Assembly: GCA_008330645.1 (NCBI GenBank)
Contig: VLTN01000057.1
Span: forward strand, 1 to 64,000
Reading direction: 5' to 3'
DNA: 64,000 bases
DNA from: Cafeteria roenbergensis
Lineage: Eukaryota > Sar > Bigyra > Bicosoecida > Cafeteriaceae
The notes under the pieces are model-generated. The model was not told the DNA's origin and ran no database searches. It saw only the letters and a list, made by a program, of their open reading frames with translations. The position numbers and the translations under genes are program-made. This document shows, in pieces, positions 17,175-50,516 of the stretch; position 1 is the stretch's first letter; each line of letters begins with the position of its first letter.

Positions 17175-20100
17175 TCACCCTGTCGCGGAGACGGCCGCTC
17201 CGTCGCCGCTGGGCCGCCTGACCGTGCCGTCGGCCCGCAGCGGAATGAGCCTCCCCGCCGACGTCTGCTGCACGATGACCGCCCATCGCCGCTCCACCTG
17301 CTGCTGGAACGTCGCGTCGGCCGACGCAGGGGGGCCGCCGCTCCTCCGAGCCTGCCTATCCGCCAGCCTTCGCGCCGCCTTGACGATGGCCGAGGCTGCC
17401 CCGCCGACGCACCGGCTCAGCGCGGCGCCCGTGGCCTGGCCGCCGCACTTCTTCTGGTTCGCCAGCAGCGCCGCCGCCAGGCGGGCAGCGGCAGCGGTGT
17501 CGCTGCGAGCAGCCTCGTCGTCAGCCCGAGTGGCCGCATCGCCTCCGGCAGCGCCACCGGCGGCAGCAGCAGCTGGTGTGGCGCCCGCGCTGCCAGCCGG
17601 GGCGTGGACGGCCGCCCCCACAGCGCCGGCAGCAGCAGCGGCGGCTGAGGTTGCCGCAGCGGATGAGGTTGACGCAGCGGATGAGGTTGTCGCAGCGGAA
17701 GGGTCACCGCTCTGCACGCCGCCGCCGCCGCCGCCGCCGCCACAGCCGCCACTGCCGCCGCCGGCAGCGGCTTCACGGTCTCCGACTGGCGGCTCCACGG
17801 GCCGGGGTGCCTTGAAGCCTGCCGCCCGCCCCCGGCGCCGCCGTGCGAGCCGCAGGCGGTACTCAGCCAGCGCCACCTCCCGCTGCGAGCCGACGGCCCG
17901 AGCATGCTCCAGGTCGGCCTCGCGCGCCGACGTGTCGCCGCTCGCGCTGGCGGGGCCGGAGTCCGCAGCGGCCGCCGCCGCAGAGGCCGCGTCCTCGGCC
18001 GCCACAACGGCGTCGATGCCGGACCCCCGAGGGGCGGCTCTGCCGGCAGAGCCCGGCCCGCAGACGCCCGCACTGTCTTGGTCGATCGCAAAGGAGCCGG
18101 ATGACGGTCCATGCACGCCCACGCGCGTTGCTCGGAGCCGCTTGGCGCCGGCCCCCTGAAGCAACCTGCCGCCGCCGTCTGGTCCGGCGTCTCCGTCAGA
18201 ATCGTCGGCGCTGCCGTCTTCGTCGTCGTCGTCTGGATTCCCGCTGTAGAACCCGCCCCCGCCCCCGCTCCCGCCGCCCTCGCGCCGGCGCCGACGTCGC
18301 TTCACCGCCTTATCCGCCGCACTGCCCCGTTCAACGGCAAAGTCGCCTCCGCGCCTCGTTGCCGCCATAGCCCGGCGAACGGCTCTGATGTCCTCGCAGA
18401 CGTCGCAGAGACGGACGTCAACCGCAGGGGTCCCGCCGGGGGCCCTCCCAGCTGACAGGAAACTGGAGTGCCTCTGCCGGCAGGTGGCAGAGCTCTCGCC
18501 GAAGTGACCGACAATCGCAGCGCGGCGGCACTTCGCGGACATGAGCGTCGACTCGACCGCCGCCAGGTCCGCAACGGACACCTCCAGCTGGTCCTGCAGC
18601 TCCCGAACCCGCGCGGCCCGTTCGGCAGAGCTGGTGGCCGACTCCATCACAGCCTGCTCCTTCCGACGAGCGTCTAGGCCCAGGAGCCGCGAAACCGCTC
18701 CAAAGTCCTGCCTCCTGACGAAGCACCACCACTCGGCAGCAGCCCCGTCGCGGCCGGCTCTGCCGGCCTCCTGCGCCAACGAGTCCATCGTGCCGGGCAC
18801 GGACCACCGGATGACGGTCCGGACGTCGGCGCGATCGATCCCGAGCCCGAACCCGATGGTGGCCACCATCACCGACTGCGGCTGGCTCTGCCAGGCCGCC
18901 TGTGCCGCCTCGCGCCGGGCCTTGGGGAGGCCGGAGTGGTACACGTGAATGCAACTGGCGCCGAAGGCCGTCCCGCCGCCGCTGCCAGCGCCGCCGCTGC
19001 CAGCACCGCCAGCACCGCCAGCACCAGCACCGCCAGCGCCAGCACCGCCAGCACCAGCGCCGCCGCCAGAAGCGGATCCGAGCGGGGCTAAGCCCGAGCC
19101 ATTAAACCCTAACCCCGCCTGCTCAGCCCTGCGGGCTGCGGCCGCGGCAGCCACCTGCCCCAGCCGCGCCGCCACGTCCTCGGCGTCGTCCTTCCTTCGC
19201 ACGTACACGATGGCGGCGGCCCGCTTCACGGCCGCCCCGGGGCCCCAGCCGCCTCCGGCAGGGCCGCTACAGCCGGCACGGCCGCTACAGCCGGCAGGGC
19301 CGCTACAGCCGGCGGGGCCCGTGCCGGCAGGGCCCGTGCCGGGGGCCCTCGGGCAGAGCATGCCGACGAGACTTCTTGTCCCAGCAGCTGCCGCTCTCAG
19401 ACTGGCAGAGCCAGCAGAGCCAGCAGAGCCGCCTCCGCGCGACCGGGCGCTCGCTGGCCGCGGCCCCGCAACGGCCGATGCGCTAGCTGCTCGGGAGGCT
19501 GTCGTGAAACCGCCGGGAAGGGGGGCGTCGTCGTCCTGGGTCGCGGCCTGAGACGGCTTGAACGCTGCAGCAGTCGTGAAACCGCCGGCAGCGGCGACGA
19601 TGGAGGACGCCGTCCTGAACGCCGACCCGCCCGCGCGCCCCGCCCGCCCTCGCCCCGCCGCCCCCGCCGCCCCTGCCGCCGCCCGCCCTCCCCCCTCCCC
19701 CCCACCGTCGTCGTCATCATCGTCGTCGTCACCGCCGCACGCCCCCTCCCTGCCCCCCGCCCCGCCCTCGTCGCCCGCGGCGGGCATCAGGTCTGGGACC
19801 GCTCGCCGGAGGAGCGCTACCAGCTTGCGCAGAGCCGCAGCGTCGCTCATCCCGTCGGCGTAGACAGCCCCGTAGCGGAGATTCGGCCTGTCCATGGTCG
19901 ATCGCAGCACGGCGCCCGACTCGATGCCCAGGCTCTGCCGGACAAGGGCGACGGTGCGCTTGCTAGCCGTGGCTGTCACGGCCAGGATGGGCAGAGCCGC
20001 GCCTGGCCCCGCCGCCCCCACGAGCTGGTCCCGCATCCGCCCTATCGCCTGGTAGGCCGGGCGAAAGGCTGCGCCCCAGCTGTCGACGCAGTGGGCCTCG

Positions 20101-20621
20101 TCCACGGCAAGCGCAAGCACCCGCCCCCGCCCCAGCGCCGCGGCAACGGCCCCGAACAGCGACGGCGTCTGCAGCGACTCGGGCGTCGTGAACACCACCG
20201 GCGGCAGGCCTGGCTCGGGCCCGGCGGCAGAGCCCGCGGGGACGCCTCGCAACGCAGCCAGCAGCCGCTCGCGAGGCGCGCCAGCGACGTCCGACGACAC
20301 CTGCCCGGCACGCAGGCCGCGCGCCTCCATGCCCTTGGCCTGGTCGGCGATGAGGGCCTTGGTCGGGGAGAGCACGATCACGGTGCAGCCGGCGCGGGCG
20401 TTGGCCACCACTGCGGGCAGCTGGAACGTCAGCGACTTGCCACCGCCCGTGGGCATGAGCACCAGGGTGTCCTTGCCCTCCAGCACGCGCAGGCAGGCCT
20501 CGCGCTGCTCTGGCGAGCGGAAGCTCGCGAACCCGAACGCGCTGCGCAAGTGCTCCGACAGCAGCTCATCCAGCGCCTCCCGGCCCCGCGACCGCAGCGC
20601 CGCCGCCCCCGACAGCAGCAT
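17175..20621 (-). CDS. RecQ-family DNA helicase with long low-complexity insertions
   Basis: RecQ enzymes are 3'-5' DNA helicases used in recombination repair. The ATG at 20619-20621 gives a 1148-residue protein with no intron. SPEQREACLRVLEGKD is the Q/0 motif, MPTGGGKS is Walker A (about residue 59), VDEAHCVDSWG is motif II (about 175) and AVTATA is motif III. An Asp/Gly/Ala/Ser-rich insertion of about 200 residues separates the lobes. The second lobe has IVYVRRKD (about 470), YHSGL, GFGLGID and QEAGRAGRDG (about 620). A RecQ zinc site follows, KCRRAAIVGHFGE and CDVC (about 738). The last 350 residues are Ala/Gly-rich with a basic patch; no HRDC domain is visible. The frame also stays open far upstream of the ATG, over sequence that looks non-coding. 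Confidence 0.92.
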   Translation of the reverse strand: MLLSGAAALRSRGREALDELLSEHLRSAFGFASFRSPEQREACLRVLEGKDTLVLMPTGGGKSLTFQLPAVVANARAGCTVIVLSPTKALIADQAKGMEARGLRAGQVSSDVAGAPRERLLAALRGVPAGSAAGPEPGLPPVVFTTPESLQTPSLFGAVAAALGRGRVLALAVDEAHCVDSWGAAFRPAYQAIGRMRDQLVGAAGPGAALPILAVTATASKRTVALVRQSLGIESGAVLRSTMDRPNLRYGAVYADGMSDAAALRKLVALLRRAVPDLMPAAGDEGGAGGREGACGGDDDDDDDDGGGEGGGRAAAGAAGAAGRGRAGRAGGSAFRTASSIVAAAGGFTTAAAFKPSQAATQDDDAPLPGGFTTASRAASASAVAGPRPASARSRGGGSAGSAGSASLRAAAAGTRSLVGMLCPRAPGTGPAGTGPAGCSGPAGCSGRAGCSGPAGGGWGPGAAVKRAAAIVYVRRKDDAEDVAARLGQVAAAAAARRAEQAGLGFNGSGLAPLGSASGGGAGAGGAGAGGAGAGGAGGAGSGGAGSGGGTAFGASCIHVYHSGLPKARREAAQAAWQSQPQSVMVATIGFGLGIDRADVRTVIRWSVPGTMDSLAQEAGRAGRDGAAAEWWCFVRRQDFGAVSRLLGLDARRKEQAVMESATSSAERAARVRELQDQLEVSVADLAAVESTLMSAKCRRAAIVGHFGESSATCRQRHSSFLSAGRAPGGTPAVDVRLCDVCEDIRAVRRAMAATRRGGDFAVERGSAADKAVKRRRRRREGGGSGGGGGFYSGNPDDDDEDGSADDSDGDAGPDGGGRLLQGAGAKRLRATRVGVHGPSSGSFAIDQDSAGVCGPGSAGRAAPRGSGIDAVVAAEDAASAAAAAADSGPASASGDTSAREADLEHARAVGSQREVALAEYRLRLARRRRGRAAGFKAPRPVEPPVGDREAAAGGGSGGCGGGGGGGGVQSGDPSAATTSSAASTSSAAATSAAAAAAGAVGAAVHAPAGSAGATPAAAAAGGAAGGDAATRADDEAARSDTAAAARLAAALLANQKKCGGQATGAALSRCVGGAASAIVKAARRLADRQARRSGGPPASADATFQQQVERRWAVIVQQTSAGRLIPLRADGTVRRPSGDGAAVSATG

Positions 20622-21596
20622 GGCGCCCCCCTTGCCCCCGCACCGATCCAAACTGCGCACGGGGCAAGGCCCAGAGCCGGGCGGCCGCTGTGCCCCGCGG
20701 GTGGCTGCATCACCGGCGTGCGCACTTGCCCGGCCGGCAGAGCCCGCTGCAAGGCGCACACCGAAACGCGATGCTCGCCGCCCGTCCGTGCCCCAGGTGC
20801 CGAGGAGGCGTGGGCTGGCGCGGGATCCCTTCACACACCCCGGCGAGGCACGGCAGTGTCGCGCGCCGCTTCGTGCGGGCGCACTGGCGCCGCGGTTGCA
20901 GGCGCGTGGAGTGCCGGCCCGCGCTGCGCGGTTTCGGGGCGGAGAACTGCGAGGCCGACGCTGAGTGGTGCGGGCTGCCCGCCCCCCTGACGAAGGCGAC
21001 GGGGCCTCTGTGACGAGGGCCAGGCACCGTGTGGCTGCCGGTGGCGGACCGCAGCGCCACCACGGCACCCGCGGCTGTGCGAGGAGCACACAAGCTGCTG
21101 TACCAGCTGCGAAACCACGTCGCTCACGGTGGCGCAGTGTCGGGCAGCGCTGAAGCAGCTGCCACGATGCAGAAATACTTTTTCCAGGTCGGTTGGCGAG
21201 CAGCACCCTGACTTCGCCCGCGCAGTGTCCACGATGGCAATCTGGCGCCTGCACGAGGGCAAGTGCGCTGAAGCCCTTGAGCAGCTGACCAGGAGCGCGG
21301 ATATCCTTGCCTCTTCGCTGGGCGAGCATCATCCGCAGGTTCTGCAAACTCGCCGGCTCATCGAGGCTTGCTTGCAATAGCTTGTCTTGCGTCAGCCGTT
21401 TCGAGATTGCTGTGGCGGCGTGGCCTGGCTCGTGCGGGGTCGTCTTGTGCGATGCTGGCTTGGAAAGGCGCGCGCCTCGCTTCCAACCTCGGTCGGCATT
21501 GGGCCGCGTGCCTGGCGCTCGTGTCACGGCTCCAGGCCCGCCGCTCAAGCTTTCAATTGGGCCAGTCACAAGACCGCCCGCCCCCAGCGCCGCCGC
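20622..21596. other. RecQ upstream region / MDR gene downstream region
   Basis: 975 bp between two minus-strand genes. Apart from the plus-strand TPR remnant at 21029-21380 I see no gene; the left half should hold the RecQ promoter. Confidence 0.5.
21029..21380 (+). pseudogene. Small TPR (kinesin-light-chain type) fragment
   Basis: The plus frame ending at the TAG 21378-21380 encodes VGEQHPDFARAVSTMAIWRL, then KCAEALEQLTRSADILASSL and GEHHPQVLQTRRLIEACLQ. This has the GxHHP and A...L spacing of kinesin-light-chain TPR repeats, about one and a half units. The part before it (21029-21150) is suggestive only in another frame. No ATG with a signal or splice partner was found. It may be a gene remnant or one exon of an unseen gene. 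Confidence 0.5.
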
Positions 21597-23788: not shown

Positions 23789-24301
23789 GAGCGCTACCTG
23801 CGGTGCGCGCGAGGGCGCGTGCATGCGCTCACGGCGGGGTCGAGCGGGGCCAGGTGCGGCGAGGGCGGGAATGCCGAGGCTGGCGCCGTGGCGACACTTG
23901 GCCGCCCATCCACGCGCACGCCCTCCCCTTCGCGCCTAGCGGCGGCCGCCAAGGCAGCCCGCGGCGTACACCCAACCACTTTACCCGCTTTCACTGGTGA
24001 CAGTGGCCGGGCGCCAGGGGTGCGGAAGGGGAATGGGAGCGCAGGGAGCGCGTGCGCCGCGCACAGCATGGCCTCGCTCGCGAACGCACGGTCACAACGG
24101 CCACACAGCCCCCCAGCACGCGTAACCTCATCAGACGCCTCACCGCAGGGGCTCGGAGAGTGGGCGAGCGCCCGCCACCGCCACCTGGACTGACCGACGC
24201 TCGCCCAACCTCAAGCCTTGGCCACGACAAATCTGCCATGGCAGAGCCCCCCAGCTCGCAACGCGCGCCGCGCTCCAAGGGCCAGCACAGCGCCGGGGGC
24301 C
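23789..24301. promoter_or_regulatory. Divergent spacer between the MDR gene and SKI8
   Basis: 513 bp between start codons of opposite genes. No coding signal. Probably carries both promoters; no TATA box is seen. Confidence 0.45.
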
Positions 24302-25572
24302 ATGTTCCGCACGCTGCTGAACGACCCTGCGTGCCACACCGATACGGTGACGGCGCTGGCGTGGGGCCGCGACGGCTCGCTCGTCACCGCCTCCATCGAC
24401 GAGACCCTGACCATCCAGTGAGCACGATGCTGCCGCCCTGCTCCTGCCCCTGCGTCGCTTTCGGGCATCGGCAGGCGTGTGCGGACCGCTCGAAGGGACC
24501 GGCGCGATCTGGTCTGGCCGGGAGCCAGATTGCGCGGGGCACTGCTGCTTGCCACGGCCGGTGCACCGCGGCGCACGGCCGGGCACGGCCAAAGGCGCGC
24601 CTTGCTTCCCCGCCATCTCTCCCACGCCTACTCACGCCCCGCCCGTTGGTGTGCGCGCGCGTGCCACTTCTGCTTTGGCTGCCTGCACCGCCGCTGTCGC
24701 TGCTACTAGCGCGTTTGTTGCCTCTGCTTTCGCGCGCATTGCGCAGCGACGTGGCTGCCCCCGAAAGCGATGGAGCCGCTGCCGACTCGGGCGCCTCCTC
24801 GGCGATCGCTCTCACGCCGCGGCACGTTGTGAAGGACCTCGACCTCGGAATCGTGTCCCTGTCAGCGGCCCATCACGCGAACATCGTGGCAGGGGCGACG
24901 ATGGACAGCGTCGTGAAGGTGTGGGCCCTCGACTCGGGGGAGGAGCTGCTCTCCGTGGACCCGGGGGCTCTGCAGGCATGGTGCGTTGACTGGCACCCCT
25001 CCAAGCCCATCCTCGCAGCCACCACACACTCGGGCGCGGTTTCGCTGCTGGACGGAGAGACTGGCGAGAAGCGGCGAGCCATCGACACGCGGGCCGGATT
25101 CGCATCCTGCGTGGCGTTCAGCCCGGACGGCGGGGCCGTCGCGACGGCGTCCCTGGAGGGCAAGGTGTCCGTTATGGACGTTGAGACCGGCGCTTTGCTC
25201 CACTCGGCAGAGCCGCACCGGCGCCCCATCAGGTCGCTTGTGTGGGCGCCTGACGGCACTAGGCTGCTCACAGGCTCAGATGACGCGCGCGTGACCGTGC
25301 TTGACGTCGGGTCGACCGGCCTGTCCGCTGTGCACTCGCTGGCGGGTCACACCGCACCAGTTACCGCAGTCGCAATGCGCCCCGACGGGCTGCAGGCAGT
25401 GTCAGCGTCGGCCGACACCACCGCCCGGCTGTGGGACCTGCGCGCCAGAGAGCCGGTGCACACTTTCCGGTCGCACGAGGAGCGCATCGGGGCAGCTGAC
25501 TACTCCGCCGACGGCGTGAGGGTGGCGACGGGCGACGACGCCGGCCGCGTGTGCGTGCATGCTGCCAACTGA
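24302..25572 (+). CDS. SKI8: SKI8/WDR61 WD40-repeat protein
   Basis: In other eukaryotes Ski8/WDR61 is a scaffold of the cytoplasmic SKI complex that feeds mRNA to the exosome, and of the nuclear Paf1 complex. Exons 24302-24417 and 24747-25572 join in phase (329-bp intron, GTGAGC...CAG) to give 313 residues, close to the 305 of human WDR61. Seven blades can be seen: HTDTVTALAWG near the N-terminus, then VVKVWALDSGEEL, DAW-like LQAWCVDWHPSKP, SLLDGETGEK, FASCVAFSPDG, VDxETGALLHSAEPH with RPIRSLVWAPDG, GHTAPVTAVAMRPDG and a last ADYSADGVRVATGDDAG. The order and the RPIRSL strand are typical of WDR61. An Ala/Ser-rich insert of about 20 residues sits at the exon junction. Confidence 0.88.
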
Positions 25573-26220
25573 GTGCGTGGCTGCTGCGAGGCTTCGCGCC
25601 CGCCTCGCATCGCTCCAGAGTCCAATCCGAAATATGCATGCATCCAGTCCGCTGGCCGGTTGCGGCCGACCACACGACGGATCGCAACAGCAACCCCGAG
25701 CCGCGCAGCTATTGGCAACGCGTTGCGATCGAGCACAGCAAAGCAATGGGCAGCGCGATCGAGCACAGCAAAGCAATGAGCAGCGCGATCGAGCATTGTG
25801 CATCAATAAGCAGTGTGATCGAGCACAGCAAAGCAATGACCGGCGCGATTCAGCATTGCAACACAATTCGCAGCGCAGTGCGATCAAGCACGGCATATCT
25901 ATTCGCAGTGCAGCACGACAAAGCGCAAGAAAGCAATTCGCGGCTCTTCAAATGTGGGTGTCATCGCGCACTCTGTTGGCAGCATGCACGATACCACACC
26001 GACACGAAAACACAAAGCGTGACGCAGCGCTTCGCTGGGCTGCAGGCTGTCAATTTGCGGCGTGTGACTGCAGCCAACCCGCTCCATTTGCAGTGATTTT
26101 TTGTGTGGTTGGGCGCGCGACTTGATTGCTGACAATTCGCTGGCGAAAGCAAGCGTGGCCGCCGCTCCAGCTCCACACAAGCTCGAGTCGATGCGACCGT
26201 CACTTCCGCCCGCCGGCCAC
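25573..26220. other. Convergent spacer between SKI8 and the ARM-like gene, AT-richer, with 30-bp repeats
   Basis: 648 bp, clearly less GC-rich than the flanks. It is occupied largely by the decaying 30-bp array (separate entry). No gene is seen. Confidence 0.6.
25725..25940. repeat. Degenerate 30-bp tandem repeat array
   Basis: Units of 30 bp start at 25725, 25755, 25785, 25815 and 25845, of the type GCGATCGAGCACAGCAAAGC followed by AATGAGCAGC. Further decayed units continue to about 25940. Unit 1 and unit 2 differ by one base; later ones diverge progressively. The GCGATC(G) core is kept longest. It sits just past the SKI8 stop, in the convergent spacer. Confidence 0.85.
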
Positions 26221-28044
26221 TCAGAGTACCGCTTCTCGCAGGGCAGGCGTCGCGGCGAGCGCGCCCTCCAGCGCCTCCTTCAGCTCGCTGTCGGACCGGA
26301 GCAGCGCCCGCACATCGGAGAGCGACGCGGCCGAACCGCTGCACAGAGCCACCAAGACTTTTCCCAGCCGCATCACCGTCGCATCATCGCCACAGCCAGA
26401 GGCAAGCACCGACCCGCGCAGCAGCGCCTCGCCCGCACCCGTCACGCTGGACAGCGCGGCCAGGCCGGGCGGAAGGCTGTCGCCGCCGCCCCCCGACCCG
26501 CCCAGGGAGCCGGCTGCGCTCCAGCCCGGCCCCCACAGGCGACTCACCCCGTCCGCGTGGCCGGCGGCGAAACGCTCCTCCAGCCCCGCCCTGACGCCGG
26601 CGGCGGACGCCACTTCCGGGAAGGCCTCGCTGAGCTCTGCCAGCAGAGCCGACGCGAGGGCACGGTCCCCGCCCTCGACCTCGTCCGAGGCCACTGCCGC
26701 TGCCGCAGGCCAAGCCACGGCTGGCCCCAGGTGGCGGCACACGATGGCACCGGCCTCGCTGGCGGTTTCGCCGGCCTCAGCGTGGGCCAGGAGCGCCGCT
26801 CTCACGATGGACCACAGCTGCGGGCAGATCCTTCCGGGGCCGAGCGACGCGGCAGAGCCGGGCTGACCGACGAGCGACGCGGATCGGCAGAGCCCGCAGA
26901 GCGCGAGCACTGCGTCCGATGTGCCGATCGGTTCCTGCTTCCCCGTTGTGAGAGACGCGAGTCCCTCAGCCATCACCGCCACATCACGCGCCATCACCGC
27001 CCTCTCACCGCAAGGCGTGGCGAGCACCGCCGCCAGCGCCGCGGCAGCAGCGCGCCGGTGAGCCGGCGTCGCGCTGGGCCCAAGCCACCCCACGAGCGAG
27101 CCGGCGGCGCCTGTTGCTGCTGCCGCCTCAATGGCCTTCGCGCCGCCGGCAGTGCAGAGCCGCGCGAAACAAGCCAGCACTTCAACGGACAAGCCGGCCG
27201 ACCCCAGCGACGGACAGAGGTCTGACGCGAAACCGCGCGGCAGGGGCGCTGGAGGGCGGAGGGAGTTGCCTCCGGCTCTGGCTCCGCCGACAGCCACCGC
27301 CCCGGGCCAGGCTTCCACTTCGTCCAAGGCGGCGGCCATGAAGATGGCGAGCGACGTGGCCAGGCCCGAGCTGAGCAACTCCATCGCGAAACCGCCGCAG
27401 AGGTTTCGGACGGTGGTGATGAGGCGGGCGTTTCCGGGAAGGGCGCGGACGAGGCGTTCAACGGCTGGCGGGACGCTGGCTCGGGCGGCGGCGGCGGCGG
27501 CAGTGGGCTCCCCGGCAGCGGCAGAGCCGGCTGGTGTCTCTGCGGACTCCGACGGAATCCTTCCGTCCGCATGGGCGACGAGGTGGGCATGCTCGCCGAA
27601 CGCCGTGATGGTGGCGAGGACGTCGGCGGCAGCGTGACGGCACGCGGGACCGTCGTCGTTCCCAGCCATGCTGATGAGAGTGGCCACCGCCCCGGGCGCC
27701 GCGGCGGCCAGCCTGTCGCGGGCAAGCCGGACGGTGCAGAGCCGGCACAGCAGCGCTGCAGCGAGCGCTCGCACGCCCTCCTCGCTGCTCGCTCGGATCA
27801 CGTGCGCGCAGGCCTCCACGCCGCCAGCGCGAACTGTGGCGGCCTTGTCCTGCTGGCTGGAAGACAGGTTGATGAGGTGCATGAGCGCCGCGCTCTTCTC
27901 AGGAGCGGTCGTGTCGTCGATTGCAACCACGCGAACCAGCTTCTCGGGGGCGCGGCGGCCGAAGGCGAGCGCCGCCTCGTGAGGGTCGTCAGCGACGCTG
28001 GCATGGATCACGTGGACCTCGCCGGAGGCTGACAGAGTTGCCAT
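26221..28044 (-). CDS. ARM/HEAT-like helical repeat protein
   Basis: A single 607-residue frame starting at the ATG 28042-28044 (MATLSASGEVHVIH). It is built of short Ala/Leu-rich helices in the armadillo rhythm, for example ALMHLINLSSSQQDKAATVRAG followed by GVEACAHVIRASSEEGVRAL. Similar pairs recur at intervals of roughly 40 residues. There is no signal peptide, membrane span or catalytic motif. ARM proteins of this type act as scaffolds (radial-spoke RSPH14, Vac8 and importin-alpha are examples), but no subfamily can be fixed. It carries many copies of the GGCAGAGCC and GAAACCGC words. An in-frame extension to 28110 is possible but less likely. Confidence 0.75.
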   Translation of the reverse strand: MATLSASGEVHVIHASVADDPHEAALAFGRRAPEKLVRVVAIDDTTAPEKSAALMHLINLSSSQQDKAATVRAGGVEACAHVIRASSEEGVRALAAALLCRLCTVRLARDRLAAAAPGAVATLISMAGNDDGPACRHAAADVLATITAFGEHAHLVAHADGRIPSESAETPAGSAAAGEPTAAAAAARASVPPAVERLVRALPGNARLITTVRNLCGGFAMELLSSGLATSLAIFMAAALDEVEAWPGAVAVGGARAGGNSLRPPAPLPRGFASDLCPSLGSAGLSVEVLACFARLCTAGGAKAIEAAAATGAAGSLVGWLGPSATPAHRRAAAAALAAVLATPCGERAVMARDVAVMAEGLASLTTGKQEPIGTSDAVLALCGLCRSASLVGQPGSAASLGPGRICPQLWSIVRAALLAHAEAGETASEAGAIVCRHLGPAVAWPAAAAVASDEVEGGDRALASALLAELSEAFPEVASAAGVRAGLEERFAAGHADGVSRLWGPGWSAAGSLGGSGGGGDSLPPGLAALSSVTGAGEALLRGSVLASGCGDDATVMRLGKVLVALCSGSAASLSDVRALLRSDSELKEALEGALAATPALREAVL

Positions 28045-28582
28045 GACCCGTGTAGGCTGGCGGGGCCGGCAATTTGCAGAAGCCGCAGCAGCGGAACTGG
28101 CGCGGCACACTCGACCGCGTCAAAAGGCAGCCGCCAAGGGGGCACGGGCTTGGTCCGGCCCGCGGATCTGGCGTGCAGCGGGCCCTCTGGCGCTCAAAGC
28201 AGGCTCGCTCGCAGGAAGCGGGCTGTGGCGCAGCCTGTGCGGGTGGCGGTGCTGGCGCGAGTTGCGCTCCACCGGAAACGGCTCTGCCGCAGCGAACAAG
28301 CGCGGCGCCCAGCGTGGCAAAGCTCGGTTGGCTTTGCAGCCCGCCCCCGCCATTGTGCTGCTGTTGTTGCTGCGCGTATGCCTGTGTGTCTGAATGCGTG
28401 TGTCTGCGTGTGGATGTGTGCGGATGTGAGTGCAGTGTGCGTGCGTTTGCGGCGTTGCCCCGCGCCGCTGTCGCTGCTGGTGTGCTGTACAGGTACTTGC
28501 AAATGCGGCCGGTCACGCAGCGCGCCACGCCTATGGATCCTCACGCGCCTGATGAAGCAGCCGGCCCCTGCAGACGGCCGCC
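28045..28582. other. Spacer between the ARM-like and JmjC genes
   Basis: 538 bp holding the ARM gene promoter and the JmjC gene 3' end. A GT-rich microsatellite-like stretch lies at about 28375-28455 (plus strand). No gene is seen. Confidence 0.55.
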
Positions 28583-31096: not shown

Positions 31097-31364
31097 CGAG
31101 AGGGCGCCTGGGTTCGTTGCACGCAAGTTACGTCCCACGCCCTTGCGCGGGCTGGCCCAGGTGGTGCCGCGCCGGTTGCCACAGAACGCCCAGGCAATTA
31201 TTGGGATGCCAGCGAGCATTGGGCGATGAGCAGAGCGAACTCTCGCTGCGAGCCTTGCGGCGGCATGCCGGGGCTGGGCACCCGCGCAAGCCGGGCCACG
31301 CCCTTGAGCTCGGGCAGCAGCCGTTTCGGCCGCTGCCTGCGCTGTGGTCGGCCCTCAGCTCCAA
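31097..31364. promoter_or_regulatory. Divergent spacer between the JmjC and LDLa-type genes
   Basis: 268 bp between opposite start codons; presumably both promoters. Nothing else is visible. Confidence 0.4.
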
Positions 31365-37817: not shown

Positions 37818-38024
37818 GTGCCCGCGCAGTCCGGAGAGGGCGCGCCTCGTCCCTGGGGGGGGCGTGTGCGCCGCGTTTGCGCGCCGGGGCAAGGAGCGAG
37901 CGTCGTCGCTGCTGCGGCGGCTCTGCCGGCTGGGCACGGGTTTGGCGAGGCTGACTGCGCACCAGTCGGCGGTCTGGAGGGCGGCCCCGGAGGACCCGCC
38001 TGCCGATCGCTCGCGCGCCCCGTG
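37818..38024. promoter_or_regulatory. Divergent spacer between 5-oxoprolinase and the C2 gene
   Basis: 207 bp between opposite start codons, with one GGCTCTGCC word at about 37919. Probably both promoters. Confidence 0.45.
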
Positions 38025-41000: not shown

Positions 41001-42325
41001 CGGCCGGCGGTGCCGACGGCCCGGGTGGCGCCGCCTCAACGGCTATCCAGCAGCGGTCCCGGCGGTCGGGGTCAGACTCCTCCGCGATGATGCGAGCTGC
41101 CCTGCAGCGCCGGCTGGCGGCGGCGCAACGGGCCTCCGAGCAGACGGCTGCCCGCGCCCAGCGGCACCGCATCGACGAGGCGGAGTCTGAGGGCGGCAGC
41201 GGCAACGCCGCGCTGTCCATGGCTCTGCCTCTGAGCTCCCTGGAGCTGGGCCTGGCGCCCTTCGCCGCGCTGGACGCAACGGACTTTGGCCGTGGTGCCG
41301 GTGGCGGTGGCGTTGGCGGCGGCGGCCTCGGGTCCGGTGGCGGCGGCGGCGGCGGCATCGGCGGGTGGGGCCGGCTCCCAGAGTCAGCGTCTCCTAGTTC
41401 TGCATTTGCGCAGCCAACTAACAGCCTGAGTCAGCCCAGCAGATTTGTCGACCTGTCGCACCCCTCCACCTCCTCCCCCCTCACGTCAGCTGACCGCGGC
41501 CACGGCCCCCACACGGGCACCGACACCGCCCCGGGCGCCGCGCCCCACCTCCACACCAGCCACCACCCCGTAACCTCCACGTTTGACCCCTTCGGCGGCC
41601 TCGGCGCCCGCCGCGGCAGCGGCTCCGCGGCCTTCTCGCCCCGCGCCGCAGACGCCCTCCTCCGCTCAGAGGAGACCGGCCGACTCGGCCTCAGCCCGCG
41701 CCTGGCCGCCCTCTCGCTCGTCGACGACCAGCACCCCACGCTCACCGGAGCGAGACACCCCCTCACGCTGGCCTCCGCCTCAGTCTCGCCGGCAACCCCT
41801 TCGGCGCTCCTGCCGCTCGGAGACGTCGACCCCGGCGCCGTGTCGGCCCTCCCGGGCCCCGCGCTAGGCTCGCGCGCAGAGGTCTCCGCCCCCACCGGGC
41901 GCTCTGCAGGCGGGCTCACAGCAACGGGCTGGGGCGTCGGCAGTGGCGCCGGCGGCGGATCCGGCGGCGGCGGCAATGGCGCCGGCCGCGGGGGCGGGGA
42001 TGCTGCGGATACCGCCGGCTCTGCCGCCCTGTCGGGCCTGGAGGACATCATCGGCCGCCAGGCCGGCGCGCGCCGCCGTGCGCTCACCACGCCGGCGCAG
42101 CCCTCCGCCGCCAGGGCGTGGGCTCGCAACGACGCTGACGCCGTCCTCGCCTCCGCCGCCGTCGACCCCCACAGTCCCCTGGACGGGGTGACGTCGGCGG
42201 TGGTGGACGTCGACGCGGAGGACTGGATGTCGTCGCTCCCCGCACCCCGCACGCGCGCGCTCACCACCACCAGCCGCTACGCAGACCACCACGACGGAAC
42301 CGACGCCTCCCTGCACACGCAGTGA
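38025..42325 (+). CDS. C2-domain protein with very long Gly/Ser-rich tail
   Basis: Four exons (38025-38232, 38430-38478, 38772-38822, 39322-42325) join in phase to give 1103 residues. The first three short exons and the start of the fourth rebuild one C2 domain (about residues 28-140): CVQLAVLTARGV, RCFVQVTLFGTT, GRNPDWFAVETGPIFVDVP, YMTIVICGFEPGTDDPVALG and DEWLHLD. None of the separate exons shows this alone, which supports the splicing model. Acidic loop residues are partly kept, so calcium binding is possible but not certain. The remaining ~950 residues are low complexity: Gly runs, a YQPY repeat (about residue 510) and Ser/Pro/Gly stretches, with a short Arg/Ala-rich helix (LQRRLAAAQRASEQ). 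Likely a membrane-binding, largely disordered protein. Exon borders use GTGAGC, GTGAGC and GTGAGA donors. Confidence 0.72.
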
Positions 42326-45214: not shown

Positions 45215-45466
45215 CAACACCACTGCAATTCGTCGTGCGCCGCTTGCTCACGCGCGAACCAAGCGTTGCCCAATGCAGCGGCGTGTGGTTGCCAGCCGCA
45301 TCTGCAATCAAGTCCTTCGCTGCCGAACGCTGCGAACAAATATACTCATCAGCCCTGCACGCCCCCCCCTCCCGCCGCGCGGGCACACGCTCCGAATTGA
45401 CGGGACCCCCAGGGGGAATCCCAAGGCACAGCAACGATGAAGGCCAAGCGCCCTCACGCCGCACCC

Positions 45467-48169
45467 TCACTTCGCGTCCGTCACGCGCGCAGTGGGCCGC
45501 CCGCTCGTCCGCTCGGCCACCATGCCGTCAGCTCGCGTCGGCTCCGCAGTGATCTTAAACTTGCACCCGATGTCGTCTGCTCGCACCACCAGCAGCCGGC
45601 CGTCCGCCGGCTGGCCGGCGCCCTCGCTGGCCTGCAGAGCCGCAGCCGCTTCGTCCAGCTCCGCGCCTGGGCGAGCTGTGCGCGGCTCCATGTCGACACG
45701 GTCGCCGTCCTCAGACACCCTCACCCAGTGGAACGCGCACGGACCCGGTGACCCCCCCCAGTACCACGTGCGGGCTCGGAGGACGCCGCCCGGTGCCGCG
45801 GCGCCGTCGATCCACAGCTCGCGGCAGCGGGGCGGTGCCGCCTCGACCGTGTCCGAGGGGCTCGACCACCACTGGTGCCCGTCTGAACGACGCGTGACTC
45901 GCACAACGACGCGCCGTCCCGTCAGCGACGGCACGAGCGGGAGTGACGCCGGGTCGCTCAGCGCCGTCACCACGTCCGCAAGCCACTGGCCGCACGCGCC
46001 AGCACTGCTAAAGGTGGGTTGCACGTCGGCGGCGCCGGCTCCGCCGCGCCGCAGCGCCATGCAAGCTCGGAGGATCGTTGCGGCGGGAAGCGGTTTCATG
46101 TCCGTTGGGACGCCGGCGAAACGAAACACCGCCGCCCAGTCGTCTGGGAGGTCCGCCTCGCTGCCCTCAGGCAAGGCGAGATCCTTCCAGCCGCGCGGGG
46201 TCGGCGTCCGCTTCACACGGACAAACGCGCTGCCGCCAACGTCCACGGCGCCGCCGCTGTCCACGTCGGTGGCCGGAGCACCGCCCGTCGCTCCAGGTTC
46301 CGCAGACACGAACCACTCAACTGCGACCGCGTCGCTCGATGCGGCGGCCCGCAGGCGATCGGCCAACGGCCCAGCGGCAGCGGCGGTTGCTGTGACGCAG
46401 TTTCCCTCGCGAAACCGCCCTTCAGCCGTGCACACACGAAGCGTGCGGTCGCAATAGCGGCTGTGATGGTGGGGCGACACGGTGATGCGCACCTGATTCG
46501 GGTCTGACCCGCCGGCTGGGCGAGTCACAGCGCCCGGGCCGGAGCCGGCAACGTTGGCGGTTGCCGCAGGGACAGGCGTGGACCCACGCGGCGTGCCGAC
46601 CGAAGCGGTAGCTGGTGTCGACGCAGCCGCTGCAGCAGCCGGGCCGCTGCCTGGGGCGGGGGCGCGGCGGGTGGCCGCTGCCACGGCTCTGGCCTGGTGG
46701 GGCGTCGACTGGGACGACGAAACCGCGCCGGCAAGCCGGGCCGCCATGGCGGCGGCGGCGGCATCCCCTGTAGTTGCAGTTGCAGTTGATGTTGCAGTTG
46801 CAGTTGCAGTTGCGGCGTTGCTCCCAGCCTGCTGCTTGCTGTCCCGGGAAGACGACGCCGAGTCTGGCGCGTCGGCACATTGTTCCGCCGAGGACGTCGT
46901 TCCCCGGGTGGGGCTCAGAGGCGCGGCGCTTCGGTCGATGACGAGCCGAAGGCTGTCCTTGCGGAGAATCGCCCGCTTGCCGTCAGAGGCGGCCCCGGGG
47001 GGCTCGGTGGTGCCTGACACGTACACAACAGCGCCGGGAAGGTCCTCCGCGGTGGATCCCGCCCCAGCTGAGGTGACCACCTCGTCGAGCGCGAAGGCGT
47101 CTCTCAGCTGCACCGCCGCCCCCACCCGGTCGAGGTCGACCGGGTGCGTCGCGGCCACGGCAGACACCGCCTCGGCGGCGTCGCCCGAGGCGAACCACTC
47201 TGGAAGGATCGCTACCCAGGCTGACGGTGGGCCGTCGGCCGCGTCGACGTCGGCGTCGACGTCGCTGAAGATCTCGACCAGTAGCACCGTCCACGCGGTT
47301 ACGCGGCAGGTGAACTCACTGCCCCACGCCCACGCAGCCACTCCACCCGTGGTCGCTGCCGGTTCCGCTGCCGGTTCCGCTGCAGTTGCAGTTGCAGACG
47401 AAACCGTGAGCTGGTCGCCTGGTGTTGCTGGTGCTGCGCTGTCGATGGGGGAGGCAACAGCGCTGTGCTCGGAGCCCGAGTCAGCTGACTCGATGATGAC
47501 GTCGGGCTTCACAATGGAGGGAGCCGACGTCGAGCTGGCGGGATCCTTGAGCGAGCGGACGGGGGGCGACGTCTTGGCGGCGGCCGGCTTGCCGCCTGAG
47601 GCGACGGGCGCGGGGCCCGTGGTGGCAGTGTTCGAGGACGGCTTGGCGGCGTCTGCCGGCGAAGCCGGGCCGGGTCTGCTTGTGACGGCGGGGTGGGCGG
47701 TTGCCTTGGCGCTGGCAGGGGCCGCCCCTGAGGCTGGGGCGCCGCCCACCACGGCGCCTTGCACCGCGGTCACGCCCCCGAGCGGAGTACGCTCGAACAG
47801 GGCGTCGTCGAGCAGTGCCGATACCGCCGCGGCGCCCGGAGAGTTGGTTTTGGCGCCAGCCAACCTTGCGCGCGTTGCACGCGACACAGACTCGGCGCCC
47901 GTCAGCGCGGCCACAACGACGGACCTGCTTGACACGCCCCTGCCCTCGCACGCCCAAAGGCGCACTCCAAACTTGCGGTGGGGCCCGTCCGCGCTGAGCC
48001 CTGCAGCCGAGAGCACGCTGAGGCGGAGCGGAACCGCCACCCGGCTCAGCGCCGAGCCGGAATCCGAGCGCGCCTGCCGCCCTGACCGCCGCAGCGGGCT
48101 CTCCGTGGCCGTCTCGCTCGACCTGCTGTCGCCCCGGTTCCGCCTCATGCGCCGCAGCACTTGGCCCAT
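45467..48169 (-). CDS. Unknown protein with a C2-like N-terminus and AIR9-like C-terminal domain
   Basis: A single 900-residue frame from the ATG 48167-48169. The basic start (MGQVLRRMRRNRGD) has a Gly at position 2, so N-myristoylation is possible. Residues about 45-75 (VAVPLRLSVLSAAGL, then FGVRLWACEG) resemble the first strands of a C2 domain. The middle is Ala/Ser/Thr/Pro-rich, with an ordered block around AWTVLLVEIFSDVDADVDAA. Near the C-terminus, ARTWYWGGSPGPCAFHWVRV, then LLVVRADDIGCKFKITAEPT, follows the pattern of the AIR9/A9-type Ig-like repeats (GxxLRAxxYxxGGxxGxxxxxW ... DxGxxxxxxxxP) of plant and protist proteins. Function unknown; a cortical or microtubule-linked role would be only an analogy with AIR9. 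Confidence 0.6.
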   Translation of the reverse strand: MGQVLRRMRRNRGDSRSSETATESPLRRSGRQARSDSGSALSRVAVPLRLSVLSAAGLSADGPHRKFGVRLWACEGRGVSSRSVVVAALTGAESVSRATRARLAGAKTNSPGAAAVSALLDDALFERTPLGGVTAVQGAVVGGAPASGAAPASAKATAHPAVTSRPGPASPADAAKPSSNTATTGPAPVASGGKPAAAKTSPPVRSLKDPASSTSAPSIVKPDVIIESADSGSEHSAVASPIDSAAPATPGDQLTVSSATATAAEPAAEPAATTGGVAAWAWGSEFTCRVTAWTVLLVEIFSDVDADVDAADGPPSAWVAILPEWFASGDAAEAVSAVAATHPVDLDRVGAAVQLRDAFALDEVVTSAGAGSTAEDLPGAVVYVSGTTEPPGAASDGKRAILRKDSLRLVIDRSAAPLSPTRGTTSSAEQCADAPDSASSSRDSKQQAGSNAATATATATSTATATTGDAAAAAMAARLAGAVSSSQSTPHQARAVAAATRRAPAPGSGPAAAAAASTPATASVGTPRGSTPVPAATANVAGSGPGAVTRPAGGSDPNQVRITVSPHHHSRYCDRTLRVCTAEGRFREGNCVTATAAAAGPLADRLRAAASSDAVAVEWFVSAEPGATGGAPATDVDSGGAVDVGGSAFVRVKRTPTPRGWKDLALPEGSEADLPDDWAAVFRFAGVPTDMKPLPAATILRACMALRRGGAGAADVQPTFSSAGACGQWLADVVTALSDPASLPLVPSLTGRRVVVRVTRRSDGHQWWSSPSDTVEAAPPRCRELWIDGAAAPGGVLRARTWYWGGSPGPCAFHWVRVSEDGDRVDMEPRTARPGAELDEAAAALQASEGAGQPADGRLLVVRADDIGCKFKITAEPTRADGMVAERTSGRPTARVTDAK

Positions 48170-48486
48170 GGGTGCCTAGTCCGTCGCGGGAGCCGCGCGA
48201 ATCCGGCACCAGCAGTTCTGCCGCTGCCGCCGCCGCCAGTGACCCCCCTCCAGCCTGAGTGCGAAGACGCCTCGAGTTTGCCCTCGCAAGGCCCCTGGCG
48301 CAGCGCCGGGGCGGCAACAAGCAACCGCCACCTGCCGAGGCGGCTGCCCGGCTGCCCGTTCCCCCCGCGGGCGGCAAGCGCCGGTGCAAGCCGCGTCTCG
48401 CACAGCACCTCGCCCGTCGTTGAATTGACGGCAGAGCCGCGCGCCCGCCTAGTCCGAGCGCTGCGCGTTTTCACTGCGGCGGCCCC
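48170..48486. promoter_or_regulatory. Divergent spacer between the AIR9-like gene and the unknown gene
   Basis: 317 bp between opposite start codons, with one GGCAGAGCC word near 48431. No other signal. Confidence 0.4.
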
Positions 48487-50516
48487 ATGTGGGCCAGCCC
48501 GGAGACCTCCCTCGCGGGCGTGAGCCGCGCCTTCTTTGCCAACCCCCTCCCGGAGGACGATGGGCTGCGGCGGGCGGTGGCAGCCTGCATCGCTGAGCGC
48601 AAGTTCGGCCATGTGGTGCAGCTGCGCTCTCAAGGTGAGGCTGCTCCGCCCACTCGCCTCCACGCCCCGGTGACTGCCACGGGCGCTCGCAAGCGGCAGC
48701 AGTCGCTTCTCTTGCGGGGAGCCTGGGGTGTGCGCGGGCAGCTCGAGGGTGGGGGAGCAAGTGGGTAGCGCGGCGGGATGCTGCCGAGGCGCAACTGCCC
48801 CGCGCGCGCGCGCGCCAAGCTGGCTTCCCCGTGCCGGCCTGAGCGTTAGCGCCCTCCGAGGCACGCTCGGCCGTCTCTTCCGCGCGTGGCGCGTGTCCCG
48901 CTGCTGCCACCGGCGCCGCTCCTGCGCCCACGCCGTCGCTGCTCATCTGGGTTCCGCCCCGACCTGGCGCGCGCGCCGTCGCAGTGGAACACGCTGGCGT
49001 CACCTTTCACGACCTGATCCGGGCCGAGGCGGCGCTTCCGCCCGACGCCGACGCGACGGCATCGAGGGCTGCCCTCCGCTCGCGAGTGACACAGCTGAAG
49101 GCTCTCAAAGCAGCCCTGCGCACGCAGACCCGGCAGAGCTCCAGCCTCCGCCGCCAGCGACGGGCCCTCACGCAGCTGCTCAAGGCAGTCACGGCCAATC
49201 GTTCCGCCGCTGGGACCCTGCCAGAGGTCCCCGACGTGACGTCGCCCCCGCCCCTGCCTGGAGCAGCGGCACCGCGTCCCACTGCAACTTCAACTGCAAC
49301 TGCAACTGTGTCTGCACCTTCAACTGCAGCCAAGGCTACGACTACAACTGCACGGGCTGCTACGGGTGCGTCGGCCGCTGCGACGGCCACCGTCGCCGTG
49401 GCGGCTGCTGAGAGAACTACGGTGGTTGGCGGCCCGCTGGTGGCCGGCGCAGCGGCCGCTACACCAGCTGCAGCCGCCGGGGCCGATTCAGTCTACAATT
49501 CAGACTGCGACACGCCGTCAGACTGCGTTCCAACGCACGTCAGCTCGCCATCACCCGGTCTGTCAGGCATCCCTGGGGCCGGCGTGCCAGTGCTCGAAAC
49601 CGCCGCGGCGGCCAAGCCCGGCCGGCCCGCTCAGCCCCCTGCCACCCTGCTGGCCCGTCGTGGCTCCGCCGTGGATAGCTCTGCCGATGCAGAGCCGCCA
49701 AAGCCGACGTCGGCGCCCCCGCCCATTTCGGCTGCGCCCCCCCGGCGCCCGCCGCCGATATCGGCGACACCTGTTCGGAGGGATCGGCCGCCGATCGCTG
49801 CCGCGTCACCGCGCAATCAGCCCCCCATCCTCGCGGCAGCGCCGATGCGCAGGCCGCCTGCCACTCTGTCGGCTGAGCCGGCCACAGGCCCCTTGCAACC
49901 CCGCTTCTACGACCGTCACTCGTCGGCAGGAGGCTGGTCGGGCGACAGGGGGCGGTTTGGCCGCGACGTCGGCGCCTCTCCGCCGGCCGATGGCTTTGCC
50001 GGCGAGGGGCTGTCAGGGGGCCAGGCGGCGCACGGCCACGGCCACGGCCCGGCGCGGCGCCCCCCTCCAGCTGTCGTCCGTGTCACGTCCTGGAGGTCGC
50101 GGTCTGGGCAGTGGAACGCCGGGGATCGTTCCGCCGGCGTGCCTGCCGCGTCGCCCGTGTCGGCTGGGCACAGCGCCGGATCCACGACGCCCCGGGGGCC
50201 GCCAGCAGGCTCCCTCACCCCAGCCGGTGACAGGTTCGGTGGGGCTGCGCACGGGGCAGCGCCCGGTGCGGCGGCGCTGGCGAGGGGCGGCACCGGCGCG
50301 GGCGCTGGAGGGGCGGCAGGCGAGTTTGCGGGCCGTGACGAAGACAGGGCGGCGGCTGCCGGCGCCTCCTCGGGCGCACCGGGGGGCAGCGCGCAGTCGC
50401 GCCATGCCGCCTGGGGCGATGCTGCCTCGCGAAGGCATTGGGGCGCAGCCAGGCCAGGCGGGACCGCTGATGGCGGGCCTTCGTCCCGTGGACCCGGGTA
50501 CCACCGGTGGCGGTAG
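48487..50516 (+). CDS. Unknown protein with a short helical N-domain and Pro/Ala-rich tail
   Basis: Exons 48487-48634 and 48985-50516 join in phase (350-bp intron, GTGAGG...CAG) to give 559 residues. Residues 1-115 look folded and helical: FANPLPEDDGLRRAVAACIA, FGHVVQLRSQVEHAGVTFHD, LIRAEAALPPDADATASRAA, then RVTQLKALKAALRTQTRQSS as a short coiled coil ending about 110. The rest is low complexity, rich in Ala, Thr, Pro, Gly and Ser, with Arg spaced as RRPP and PRR. I do not recognise the N-domain. An uncharacterised adaptor or RNA-linked protein is possible. Confidence 0.65.

What the first reader, a model, noticed from the sequence alone, without database searches (positions are those of the whole stretch)
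17175..50516. Two short DNA words are massively repeated inside the less conserved genes
GGCAGAGCC or its complement GGCTCTGCC occurs more than 30 times by eye, against about two expected by a rough GC-rich background estimate. A second word, GAAACCGC/GCGGTTTC, usually as GCGAAACCGCC, also occurs dozens of times. Both appear on both strands and in different reading frames (for example as GSA, AEP or QSR), so they are not protein motifs. They crowd RecQ, the ARM gene, JmjC, LDLa, 5-oxoprolinase and AIR9-like genes, and are nearly absent from eRF3, CDC48, UAP56, actin, COG0523 and MCM2. At 18037-18054 the two strands of the first word abut as a perfect 18-bp palindrome, and at about 30489-30535 four copies lie in a row. 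This resembles uptake-signal or HIP1-type words of bacteria, which I do not know from eukaryotes.
Basis: partly seen in the sequence, partly recalled or inferred. Interest (0 to 1): 0.75.

Follow-up and report, generated by a model that had tools for sequence, protein, structure and literature searches.

The report
DNA words inside a protist's genes
In a GC-rich single-celled eukaryote, a few exact short DNA words have been written thousands of times into the genome, chiefly into the protein-coding parts of one group of genes, on either strand and in any reading frame, which looks like a hidden second code whose reader and purpose are unknown.

Summary
GGCAGAGCC occurs 35 times in the window (about 2.5 expected) and 10,998 times in the 36.3-Mb genome, against 994 for the reversed control word; GCGAAACCGCC 818 against 76. 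Size and GC fit Cafeteria burkhardae BVI (inferred). The words are sharply defined, dispersed and strand-symmetric; they exceed synonymous-codon shuffles (66 vs 4.5; 17 vs 0.7), in 11 of 12 frame/orientation classes; codon pairs do not explain them. A third word, GTCAGCTGAC (428 vs 43), shares the genes. Word load is very uneven: 10 of 59 ORFs at 7-12x, 42 at 2.6x or less; words cluster in domains, yet noncoding DNA there is no richer than elsewhere. In 5-oxoprolinase, 11 of 12 GAAACCG copies lie in columns shared with bacterial homologues. Two GGCAGAGCC abut head-to-head as an 18-bp palindrome at 36 places (21 examined: unrelated flanks); the equal-composition tail-to-tail form was absent among the 50 of 92 pairs listed. 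Best explanation: half-sites of dimeric DNA-binding protein(s) marking the bodies of roughly 15% of genes. Uptake- or HIP1-type drive is a weaker rival. Protein, function, sister strains and expression were not testable here.

The parts
17175..21569 (-). RecQ-like helicase ORF, word-rich (9 GGCAGAGCC)
26221..28110 (-). ORF with a weak ARM hit, word-rich
28583..31219 (-). TPR/cupin ORF, word-rich
31344..32411 (+). LDLa-like ORF, word B only
32914..37278 (-). 5-oxoprolinase ORF, word-rich (7 GGCAGAGCC, 12 GAAACCG)
38831..42325 (+). ORF without Pfam hit, moderately word-rich (3.9x)
45467..48169 (-). AIR9-like ORF, word B, GTCAGCTGAC and GGAAGGATC (A+B 4.8x)
18036..18053 (.). Head-to-head palindrome GGCTCTGCCGGCAGAGCC, one of 36 in the genome
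30494..30543 (+). 12-bp tandem array GGCAGAGCCAGC x4.2 (four word A copies)
8850..8858 (+). word A GGCAGAGCC
18036..18044 (-). word A
18045..18053 (+). word A
18756..18764 (-). word A
18884..18892 (-). word A
19404..19412 (+). word A
19931..19939 (-). word A
19990..19998 (+). word A
20226..20234 (+). word A
20736..20744 (+). word A
24240..24248 (+). word A
25206..25214 (+). word A
26851..26859 (+). word A
26886..26894 (+). word A
27520..27528 (+). word A
28280..28288 (-). word A
29774..29782 (+). word A
30494..30502 (+). word A
30506..30514 (+). word A
30518..30526 (+). word A
30530..30538 (+). word A
33916..33924 (+). word A
33929..33937 (+). word A
34360..34368 (+). word A
34832..34840 (-). 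word A
35489..35497 (+). word A
35782..35790 (+). word A
36672..36680 (+). word A
37919..37927 (-). word A
39855..39863 (+). word A
41221..41229 (-). word A
42017..42025 (-). word A
48430..48438 (+). word A
57272..57280 (-). word A
60226..60234 (+). word A
18691..18698 (+). word B GAAACCGC
19506..19513 (+). word B
19578..19585 (+). word B
20928..20935 (-). word B
25036..25043 (-). word B
26762..26769 (-). word B
27229..27236 (+). word B
27388..27395 (+). word B
28782..28789 (+). word B
32080..32087 (-). word B
32092..32099 (-). word B
32229..32236 (-). word B
33079..33086 (+). word B
33545..33552 (-). word B
33746..33753 (+). word B
34007..34014 (-). word B
34215..34222 (+). word B
34714..34721 (+). 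word B
34913..34920 (-). word B
35195..35202 (+). word B
40878..40885 (-). word B
40938..40945 (-). word B
46090..46097 (-). word B
46411..46418 (+). word B
46719..46726 (+). word B
49596..49603 (+). word B
58745..58752 (-). word B
59095..59102 (-). word B
41485..41494 (.). third word, palindrome GTCAGCTGAC
47480..47489 (.). third word, palindrome GTCAGCTGAC

Best explanation
The words are binding half-sites for one or more sequence-specific, dimer-forming DNA-binding proteins that act on the bodies of a distinct class of genes, roughly 15% of the genome's genes, grouped in chromosomal domains. Shown: the words are specific DNA strings, strand- and frame-independent, beyond codon and codon-pair effects, concentrated in coding sequence of some genes, and word A favours one exact dyad geometry. 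Supported by alignment to distant homologues in one gene: word B arose by point substitution. Inferred: a dimeric protein reads them; dense arrays (median gap about 100 bp) suggest it coats or marks gene bodies (a chromatin or expression class) rather than acting at a promoter; the sites are kept by weak selection on synonymous and conservative changes. The protein and its effect are unknown.
For: Genome-wide excess: GGCAGAGCC 10,998 vs 994, GCGAAACCGCC 818 vs 76, GTCAGCTGAC 428 sites vs 43. Specificity: in 12 rich ORFs the 21 internal one-mismatch forms sum to 38 vs 51.8 expected for GGCAGAGCC and 30 vs 26.9 for CGAAACCGC, while the words are 78 vs 5.9 and 34 vs 2.1; outer positions are soft, D..H and Y..H. 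Codon shuffle in 11 ORFs: GGCAGAGCC 66 vs 4.5 (maximum 10 of 400 shuffles), GCGAAACCGC 17 vs 0.7; codon-pair model in 12 rich ORFs: 78 vs 8.1, maximum 19 of 60. 11 of 12 frame/orientation classes enriched. Uneven gene load and one mapped gene-level border. Coding in five rich loci A 161/15.6, B 64/2.6; noncoding there A 18/7.1, B 1/1.1, the same ratios as noncoding in 18 other loci (29/11.3, 2/2.0). Word B in homologous columns. Geometry: head-to-head abutment 36 of 117 pairs, 17 of the 50 listed, vs 0 of 50 listed (of 92) tail-to-tail, same composition; flanks of 21 palindromes unrelated (0 of 210 pairs at E 1e-3 with the palindrome masked). GTCAGCTGA: 17 counts (most sites counted twice) in 42 kb of rich ORFs vs 0 in 150 kb of 54 others.
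Against: No binding, expression or chromatin data, and no candidate protein. About 10,000 sites is many for selection on each. Word A shows a mild noncoding excess everywhere (about 2.5x). The rich genes share no obvious function (RecQ, Cdt1, RAP, 5-oxoprolinase, cupin/TPR). Rich ORFs were picked by word A and B counts, so their A/B ratios are inflated; in the 20 blind loci ORFs give A 54 vs 25.8 and B only 5 vs 3.6. Gene load is not cleanly two-state: 7 of 59 ORFs lie between 3.1x and 6.7x, and expected counts are small. The minor words were found by scanning the same rich sequence; only GTCAGCTGAC was then tested genome-wide. A few one-mismatch forms are above expectation on small counts (GTAGAGC 8 vs 2.1). 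Tail-to-tail abutment was seen for only 50 of 92 pairs. For word B, tail-to-tail spacing 0-2 is also frequent (7 of 25) and head-to-head spacing 7 rests on 4 of 10 pairs. In the two alleles compared, two GGCAGAGCC copies differ by 1-bp indels.
Confidence: 0.45

Rival explanations
1. Molecular drive: word-bearing alleles are favoured by a recombination-, mismatch-repair- or uptake-coupled bias, as proposed for bacterial uptake sequences and HIP1, without benefit to the host.
For: Thousands of identical dispersed copies on both strands, word B by substitution in one aligned gene; low in GC3-high genes; domain clustering.
Against: Noncoding DNA of rich loci is not enriched for word B and no more than elsewhere for A, though drive should load the least constrained DNA first; one-mismatch forms not enriched overall; a gene-level border at C36.
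Confidence: 0.25
2. RNA-level code: words and their complements in mRNAs pair with each other, within or between messages, and group the mRNAs of one gene class.
For: Coding preference, both orientations inside one message, and self-complementary palindromes.
Against: Head-to-head and tail-to-tail abutments should pair equally well as RNA, yet 17 of 50 vs 0 of 50 listed. Sense and antisense excess are alike (A 30/2.0 and 48/3.6, B 16/2.3 and 47/5.4, summed), with no balancing of the two.
Confidence: 0.1
3. Rich genes or domains came from, or were recently exchanged with, a lineage whose genome carries the words throughout.
For: Uneven gene load and domain clustering.
Against: Noncoding DNA of rich loci lacks the extra words; rich and poor ORFs alternate within a few kb.
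Confidence: 0.07
4. A context-dependent mutation process makes these strings.
For: Strand symmetry; the neighbour GGCCGAGCC is scarce, 1 vs 8.8 expected.
Against: Excess limited to coding sequence of some genes; several unrelated words; exact dyad geometry; word B at conserved residues.
Confidence: 0.07
5. Ordinary causes: codon pairs, peptide repeats, minisatellites or assembly errors.
For: One 12-bp array at 30494 and similar arrays elsewhere.
Against: Codon and codon-pair controls, frame independence, TRF masking; no in-frame stop in the 11 tested ORFs.
Confidence: 0.03

Closest known systems
DNA uptake sequences (DUS/USS) of Neisseriaceae and Pasteurellaceae
   Same: Hundreds to thousands of copies of an exact 9-12-mer, arising by point mutation, in permissive coding regions; DUS also form close inverted pairs (PMC1939737 passages and section 10; PMC2397512 passages).
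   Different: Here a eukaryote; several words; very uneven by gene; one-mismatch forms not enriched overall (they are in the uptake-sequence tables; background models differ); noncoding DNA not loaded. Uptake sequences are biased to gene ends in Pasteurellaceae (PMC2346458, abstract); here the first tenth of ORFs is poor (tentative).
HIP1 (GCGATCGC) of cyanobacteria
   Same: Massively repeated short word; a repair-biased ratchet has been proposed (PMC4390886, passages).
   Different: HIP1 is a palindrome linked to methyltransferases; the two main words are not palindromes, a methyltransferase link was not tested, and CpG o/e is near 1.
Over-represented eukaryotic 8-9-mers listed in PMC1939737 Table 7 (section read)
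   Same: Eukaryotic 9-mers far above expectation, e.g. one of unknown function on C. elegans chromosome V (1022 vs 13) and a human one in Alu-like repeats.
   Different: The table gives no gene, frame or coding analysis, so no comparison could be made; the human case is a repeat family, which the words here are not.
PATC DNA of C. elegans
   Same: A DNA signal inside some genes that acts on their expression state (PMC7725773, abstract and passages).
   Different: PATC is periodic A/T noncoding DNA, not exact words in codons.
Exonic transcription-factor sites ('duons'; recalled, no paper read)
   Same: DNA-protein recognition overlapping codons.
   Different: I recall no case with arrays of the same word about every 100 bp through a gene class.

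Membership tests
DNA uptake sequence (DUS/USS) | exact 9-12-mer in large genomic excess on both strands | tested here: met
   11-fold over the reversed word, strands 5553/5445
DNA uptake sequence (DUS/USS) | graded excess of one-mismatch forms | tested here: not met
   internal forms sum to 38 vs 51.8 (A) and 30 vs 26.9 (B) in rich ORFs
DNA uptake sequence (DUS/USS) | accumulation in noncoding and unconstrained DNA | tested here: not met
   noncoding of rich loci: B 1 vs 1.1; A 18 vs 7.1, no more than elsewhere
DNA uptake sequence (DUS/USS) | preferential uptake by competent cells | not testable with these tools
   needs an uptake assay
HIP1-type word | palindromic 8-mer | tested here: not met
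   A and B are not palindromes; only GTCAGCTGAC is
HIP1-type word | embedded methyltransferase target | not tested
   no methylation data; CpG o/e about 1.0
Codon-pair or peptide motif | excess explained by codon choice or one frame | tested here: not met
Tandem or dispersed repeat family | shared flanks beyond the word | tested here: not met
   21 palindromes: 0 of 210 masked pairs at E 1e-3; only weak flank preferences
Exonic splicing enhancer or mRNA motif | sense strand only | tested here: not met
   antisense more frequent: A 48 vs 30, GAAACCG 47 vs 16
Dimeric DNA-binding protein site | fixed dyad orientation and spacing | tested here: met
   word A head-to-head spacing 0: 36 of 117 pairs; tail-to-tail 0 of 50 listed of 92
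Dimeric DNA-binding protein site | a protein that binds it | not testable with these tools
   needs pull-down or ChIP
PATC | periodic A/T clusters in noncoding DNA | tested here: not met
   GC-rich exact words, mainly in coding DNA

The most novel reading that the evidence does not exclude
A eukaryote carries a DNA address code written through its codons: at least three exact words, read by dimeric proteins, mark the bodies of about 1,200 genes as one class, and evolution bends synonymous and conservative amino-acid choices to keep the words.
Probability: 0.4. Interest if true: 0.9.

Novelty: categorically new. Interest (0 to 1): 0.8.

Why it matters
Exact words of this strength spread through coding sequence are known to me from bacteria. 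Over-represented eukaryotic 9-mers have been listed before (PMC1939737 Table 7), but my searches brought up no eukaryotic case of several words embedded in codons of one group of genes; these searches cover open-licence papers only. The words may reveal an unknown gene-body recognition system, and they appear to shape protein sequences. Four sequenced strains exist (PMC6972860, passages), so the rival models of word gain are directly testable with public data.

Tried and rejected
Generic hairpins: among GGCnnnGCC loops AGA/TCT is 4.6-fold, the next 1.9-fold. Palindromes as fold-back duplications: of the 20 fetched and the window's own, symmetry extends 9 bases further on each side in one (L046), 4 in one (L038), 0-2 in 19. 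CpG methylation decay: CpG o/e 1.01-1.07. Regular spacing: gaps overdispersed, median 99, mean 171 bp. Avoidance of gene 5' ends: first decile 1.6x vs 4.1-9.6x, but start codons are uncertain and the bp-binned test is weak. Second alleles: none found for window 17501-37000 or for C12:120001-130000; contig C100 is an allele of part of C36 (4,185- and 1,912-column alignments, 98.9% and 99.3%); 5 of 7 GGCAGAGCC are shared in the first stretch, the other two differ by 1-bp indels that I judge, without reads, to be assembly errors; too few differences for a test of gain or loss. Rfam: nothing at gathering scores. GGCAGAGCC or GAAACCGCC as whole words in papers: none.

Caveats: GTCAGCTGA is nearly palindromic, so its strand-summed counts count most sites twice; one search gives sites. 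The reversed control of YGAAACCGH (5374 vs 2651) contains GCCAAAG-type strings, some of them enriched, so that ratio is low. ORFs were called by my own codon score, trained partly on rich genes, not from RNA; 'noncoding' is whatever that score left out, so it holds parts of real ORFs, and in the window it also holds DNA beside poor genes. L053, L054 and L138 were fetched because they were dense. In one search the 39 poor ORFs were chosen for zero A and B; 'all other' means 54 ORFs over 700 bp. The BLAST table was cut in the output; one search repeats the test with the palindrome masked.


Full report
What was checked. The window is contig C57:1-64000 of a 36,303,456-bp, 167-contig genome; the window is 70.7% GC. 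Published values for Cafeteria burkhardae (roenbergensis) strain BVI are 170 contigs, 36,327,047 bp and 70.1% GC (PMC6972860, table passage read). The species is inferred from this match alone.

The observation. Genome-wide A is 10,998 against 994 for the reversed word, GCGAAACCGCC 818 against 76. TRF masking of the window plus 20 blind 10-kb loci leaves the two words as the strongest non-homopolymer 9-mers. Flanks show only weak preferences beyond the word, such as C before GCAGAGC's leading base in half the cases.

Specificity. In the pooled sample, internal one-base variants of A are mostly near expectation while the ends are soft. In 12 rich ORFs against synonymous shuffles the motifs sharpen to DGCAGAGCH and YGAAACCGH; the 21 internal one-mismatch forms sum to 38 vs 51.8 expected for A and 30 vs 26.9 for CGAAACCGC, though single ones with small counts exceed expectation (GTAGAGC 8 vs 2.1). 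Among GGCnnnGCC loops only AGA/TCT stands out, so this is not a generic hairpin.

Not codons, not proteins. Synonymous-codon shuffles of 11 ORFs predict 4.5 copies of A (maximum 10 of 400) where 66 are seen, and 0.7 of GCGAAACCGC where 17 are seen; six control words are at 0-1.5-fold. By frame and orientation in 12 rich ORFs, GAAACCG is 7.6-9.7-fold in five of six classes, the sixth having 0 against 0.34 expected; A is 2.8- to 31-fold in all six. A model that keeps amino acids and codon-pair frequencies, trained with the rich ORFs included, predicts 8.1 (maximum 19 of 60) against 78. In six ORFs with Pfam domains, inside the domains GCAGAGC is 25 vs 3.4 and GAAACCG 12 vs 1.5; outside 83 vs 13.6 and 30 vs 3.2.

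Substitution. The 5-oxoprolinase ORF (32914-37278, minus) was aligned with 78 of 80 fetched bacterial homologues (37-52% identity in the best segment). 11 of 12 GAAACCG copies lie in columns present in most homologues, including the invariant Gly-Phe pair at residues 710-711 spelled GGT TTC, and beside conservative differences from the consensus (consensus Tyr, here Phe, at 291; Asp, here Glu, at 787 and 1089; Thr, here Ser, at 1178). Word A is different: 22 of 48 residues touched by GCAGAGC are in Cafeteria-specific insertions, against 192 of 1370 untouched residues and 3 of 36 for B. So B looks substituted in place; A partly so, and partly sits in inserted, poorly constrained segments.

Uneven genes. 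Over 59 ORFs longer than 900 bp, observed/expected for A plus B is 7.3-12.5 in 10, 3.1-6.7 in 7 and 2.6 or less in 42 (a small constant is added to the expectation). At C36 a 5.06-kb ORF holds 29 of 34 words found in 12.5 kb; the other 7.4 kb has five. On contig C1, A clusters (variance/mean 4.98 per 50 kb) and B lies near A: median 2,547 bp against about 7,500 under rotation, 3 of 5000 rotations as small (the 100 listed plus-strand A sites and 86 listed B sites up to 1.22 Mb). GC3-high genes avoid the words, yet genes of ordinary GC3 also lack them, for instance a DNA-PKcs-like and a TIG-domain ORF. From 10,998 copies, a background of about 0.8 per 10 kb and 18 per 10 kb in rich ORFs I estimate 4-4.5 Mb of rich coding sequence, roughly 1,200 genes or 15% of the 8,483 annotated for BVI (arithmetic; the rich density comes from loci chosen partly for density, so this is rough).

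Mainly coding. In five rich loci (window, L013, L024, L053, L054) coding DNA has A 161 vs 15.6 and B 64 vs 2.6 expected (order-2 model); noncoding DNA there has A 18 vs 7.1 and B 1 vs 1.1. In 18 other loci coding has 33 vs 29.4 and 3 vs 3.2, noncoding 29 vs 11.3 and 2 vs 2.0. Noncoding DNA is thus alike in both settings; only coding DNA differs. A process acting on all DNA of a region predicts otherwise.

More words. In rich ORFs the codon-shuffle scan also shows GTCAGCTGA, GAGCGACGC and GGAAGGATC, besides triplet repeats and one tandem array. They were not used to choose the rich ORFs, but they were found by scanning the same sequence. GTCAGCTGA has 17 counts (most sites counted twice) in 42 kb of rich ORFs and none in 150 kb of 54 others; GGAAGGATC 10 vs 2, GAGCGACGC 29 vs 8. 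Only the first was then tested genome-wide: GTCAGCTGAC has 428 sites against 43 for its reversed control.

Geometry. GGCTCTGCC followed by GGCAGAGCC within 0-30 bp occurs 117 times, 36 at spacing 0, about 2.7 per other spacing. The tail-to-tail order occurs 92 times; among the 50 pairs listed none is at spacing 0, against 17 of 50 head-to-head (Fisher p 3e-6). Direct pairs number 309+327 and include tandem arrays. Both abutments have the same composition and the same central CCGG, and by my reading equally ordinary peptides. The 20 fetched palindromes and the window's own have unrelated flanks: 0 of 210 pairs at E 1e-3 with the palindrome masked. I infer a protein that reads the dyad, rather than RNA pairing or cruciforms, which should treat both orders alike. 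For B, head-to-head pairs favour spacing 7 (4 of 10; Monte Carlo 0.006 for any spacing) and tail-to-tail pairs spacing 0-2 (7 of 25), a weaker and mixed hint.

Explanation. I read the words as half-sites of dimeric DNA-binding protein(s) that mark or coat the bodies of a gene class. That the words are a DNA-level feature of coding sequence is well supported; a protein reader is inferred from specificity and geometry; the consequence (chromatin, expression, replication) is a guess. Drive of the uptake or HIP1 kind is the main rival. For uptake sequences PMC1939737 reports graded excess of mismatched forms and names noncoding and unconstrained coding DNA as the susceptible parts (passages and section 10); neither fits here. 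PMC4390886 proposes repair-directed gain for HIP1 (passages); by my reasoning it should not spare noncoding DNA.

Limits. About 0.33 Mb of 36.3 Mb was read, some of it chosen for density. Sister strains, reads, RNA and binding data were out of reach. Novelty rests on paper searches, which cover open-licence papers only; PMC1939737 does list over-represented eukaryotic 9-mers.

Noticed in passing
window 82-571: A 245-bp unit in tandem (95% alike), also present at about 91% identity at the end of contig C1 (L009 1152-1463, 3354-3663); possibly a subtelomeric repeat.
   Followed up: no
window 22281-22618: A 15-bp minisatellite, 22.5 copies at 98% identity, inside an ORF with a weak Decapeptide-repeat hit.
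   Followed up: no
C100:4170-8088 (L137, L139) against C36 near 163.6 kb (L138, L140): C100 is a second allele of part of C36 and carries about 3.9 kb that the C36 allele lacks, a heterozygous insertion or deletion.
   Followed up: partly
contigs C6:28648, C7:174593, C8:159349, C20:65179, C20:65610: The 23-mer GGCAGAGCCAGAGCGGCTCTGCC recurs, probably a repeat family built around two copies of word A.
   Followed up: no
word-poor ORFs and the pooled sample: AGTCTGACG and CGGTCCAAG and GCCAAAGTCC are mildly over-represented, perhaps other words of other gene classes.
   Followed up: no
L053 5456-9367 and L138 819-5882: Among the densest word genes are a Cdt1-like replication factor and a gene with a BRCA2 OB-fold hit below the curated cut-off.
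   Followed up: no
window 32914-37278: The 5-oxoprolinase is about 50% identical to SAR324 and deltaproteobacterial proteins; a bacterial origin was not tested.
   Followed up: no
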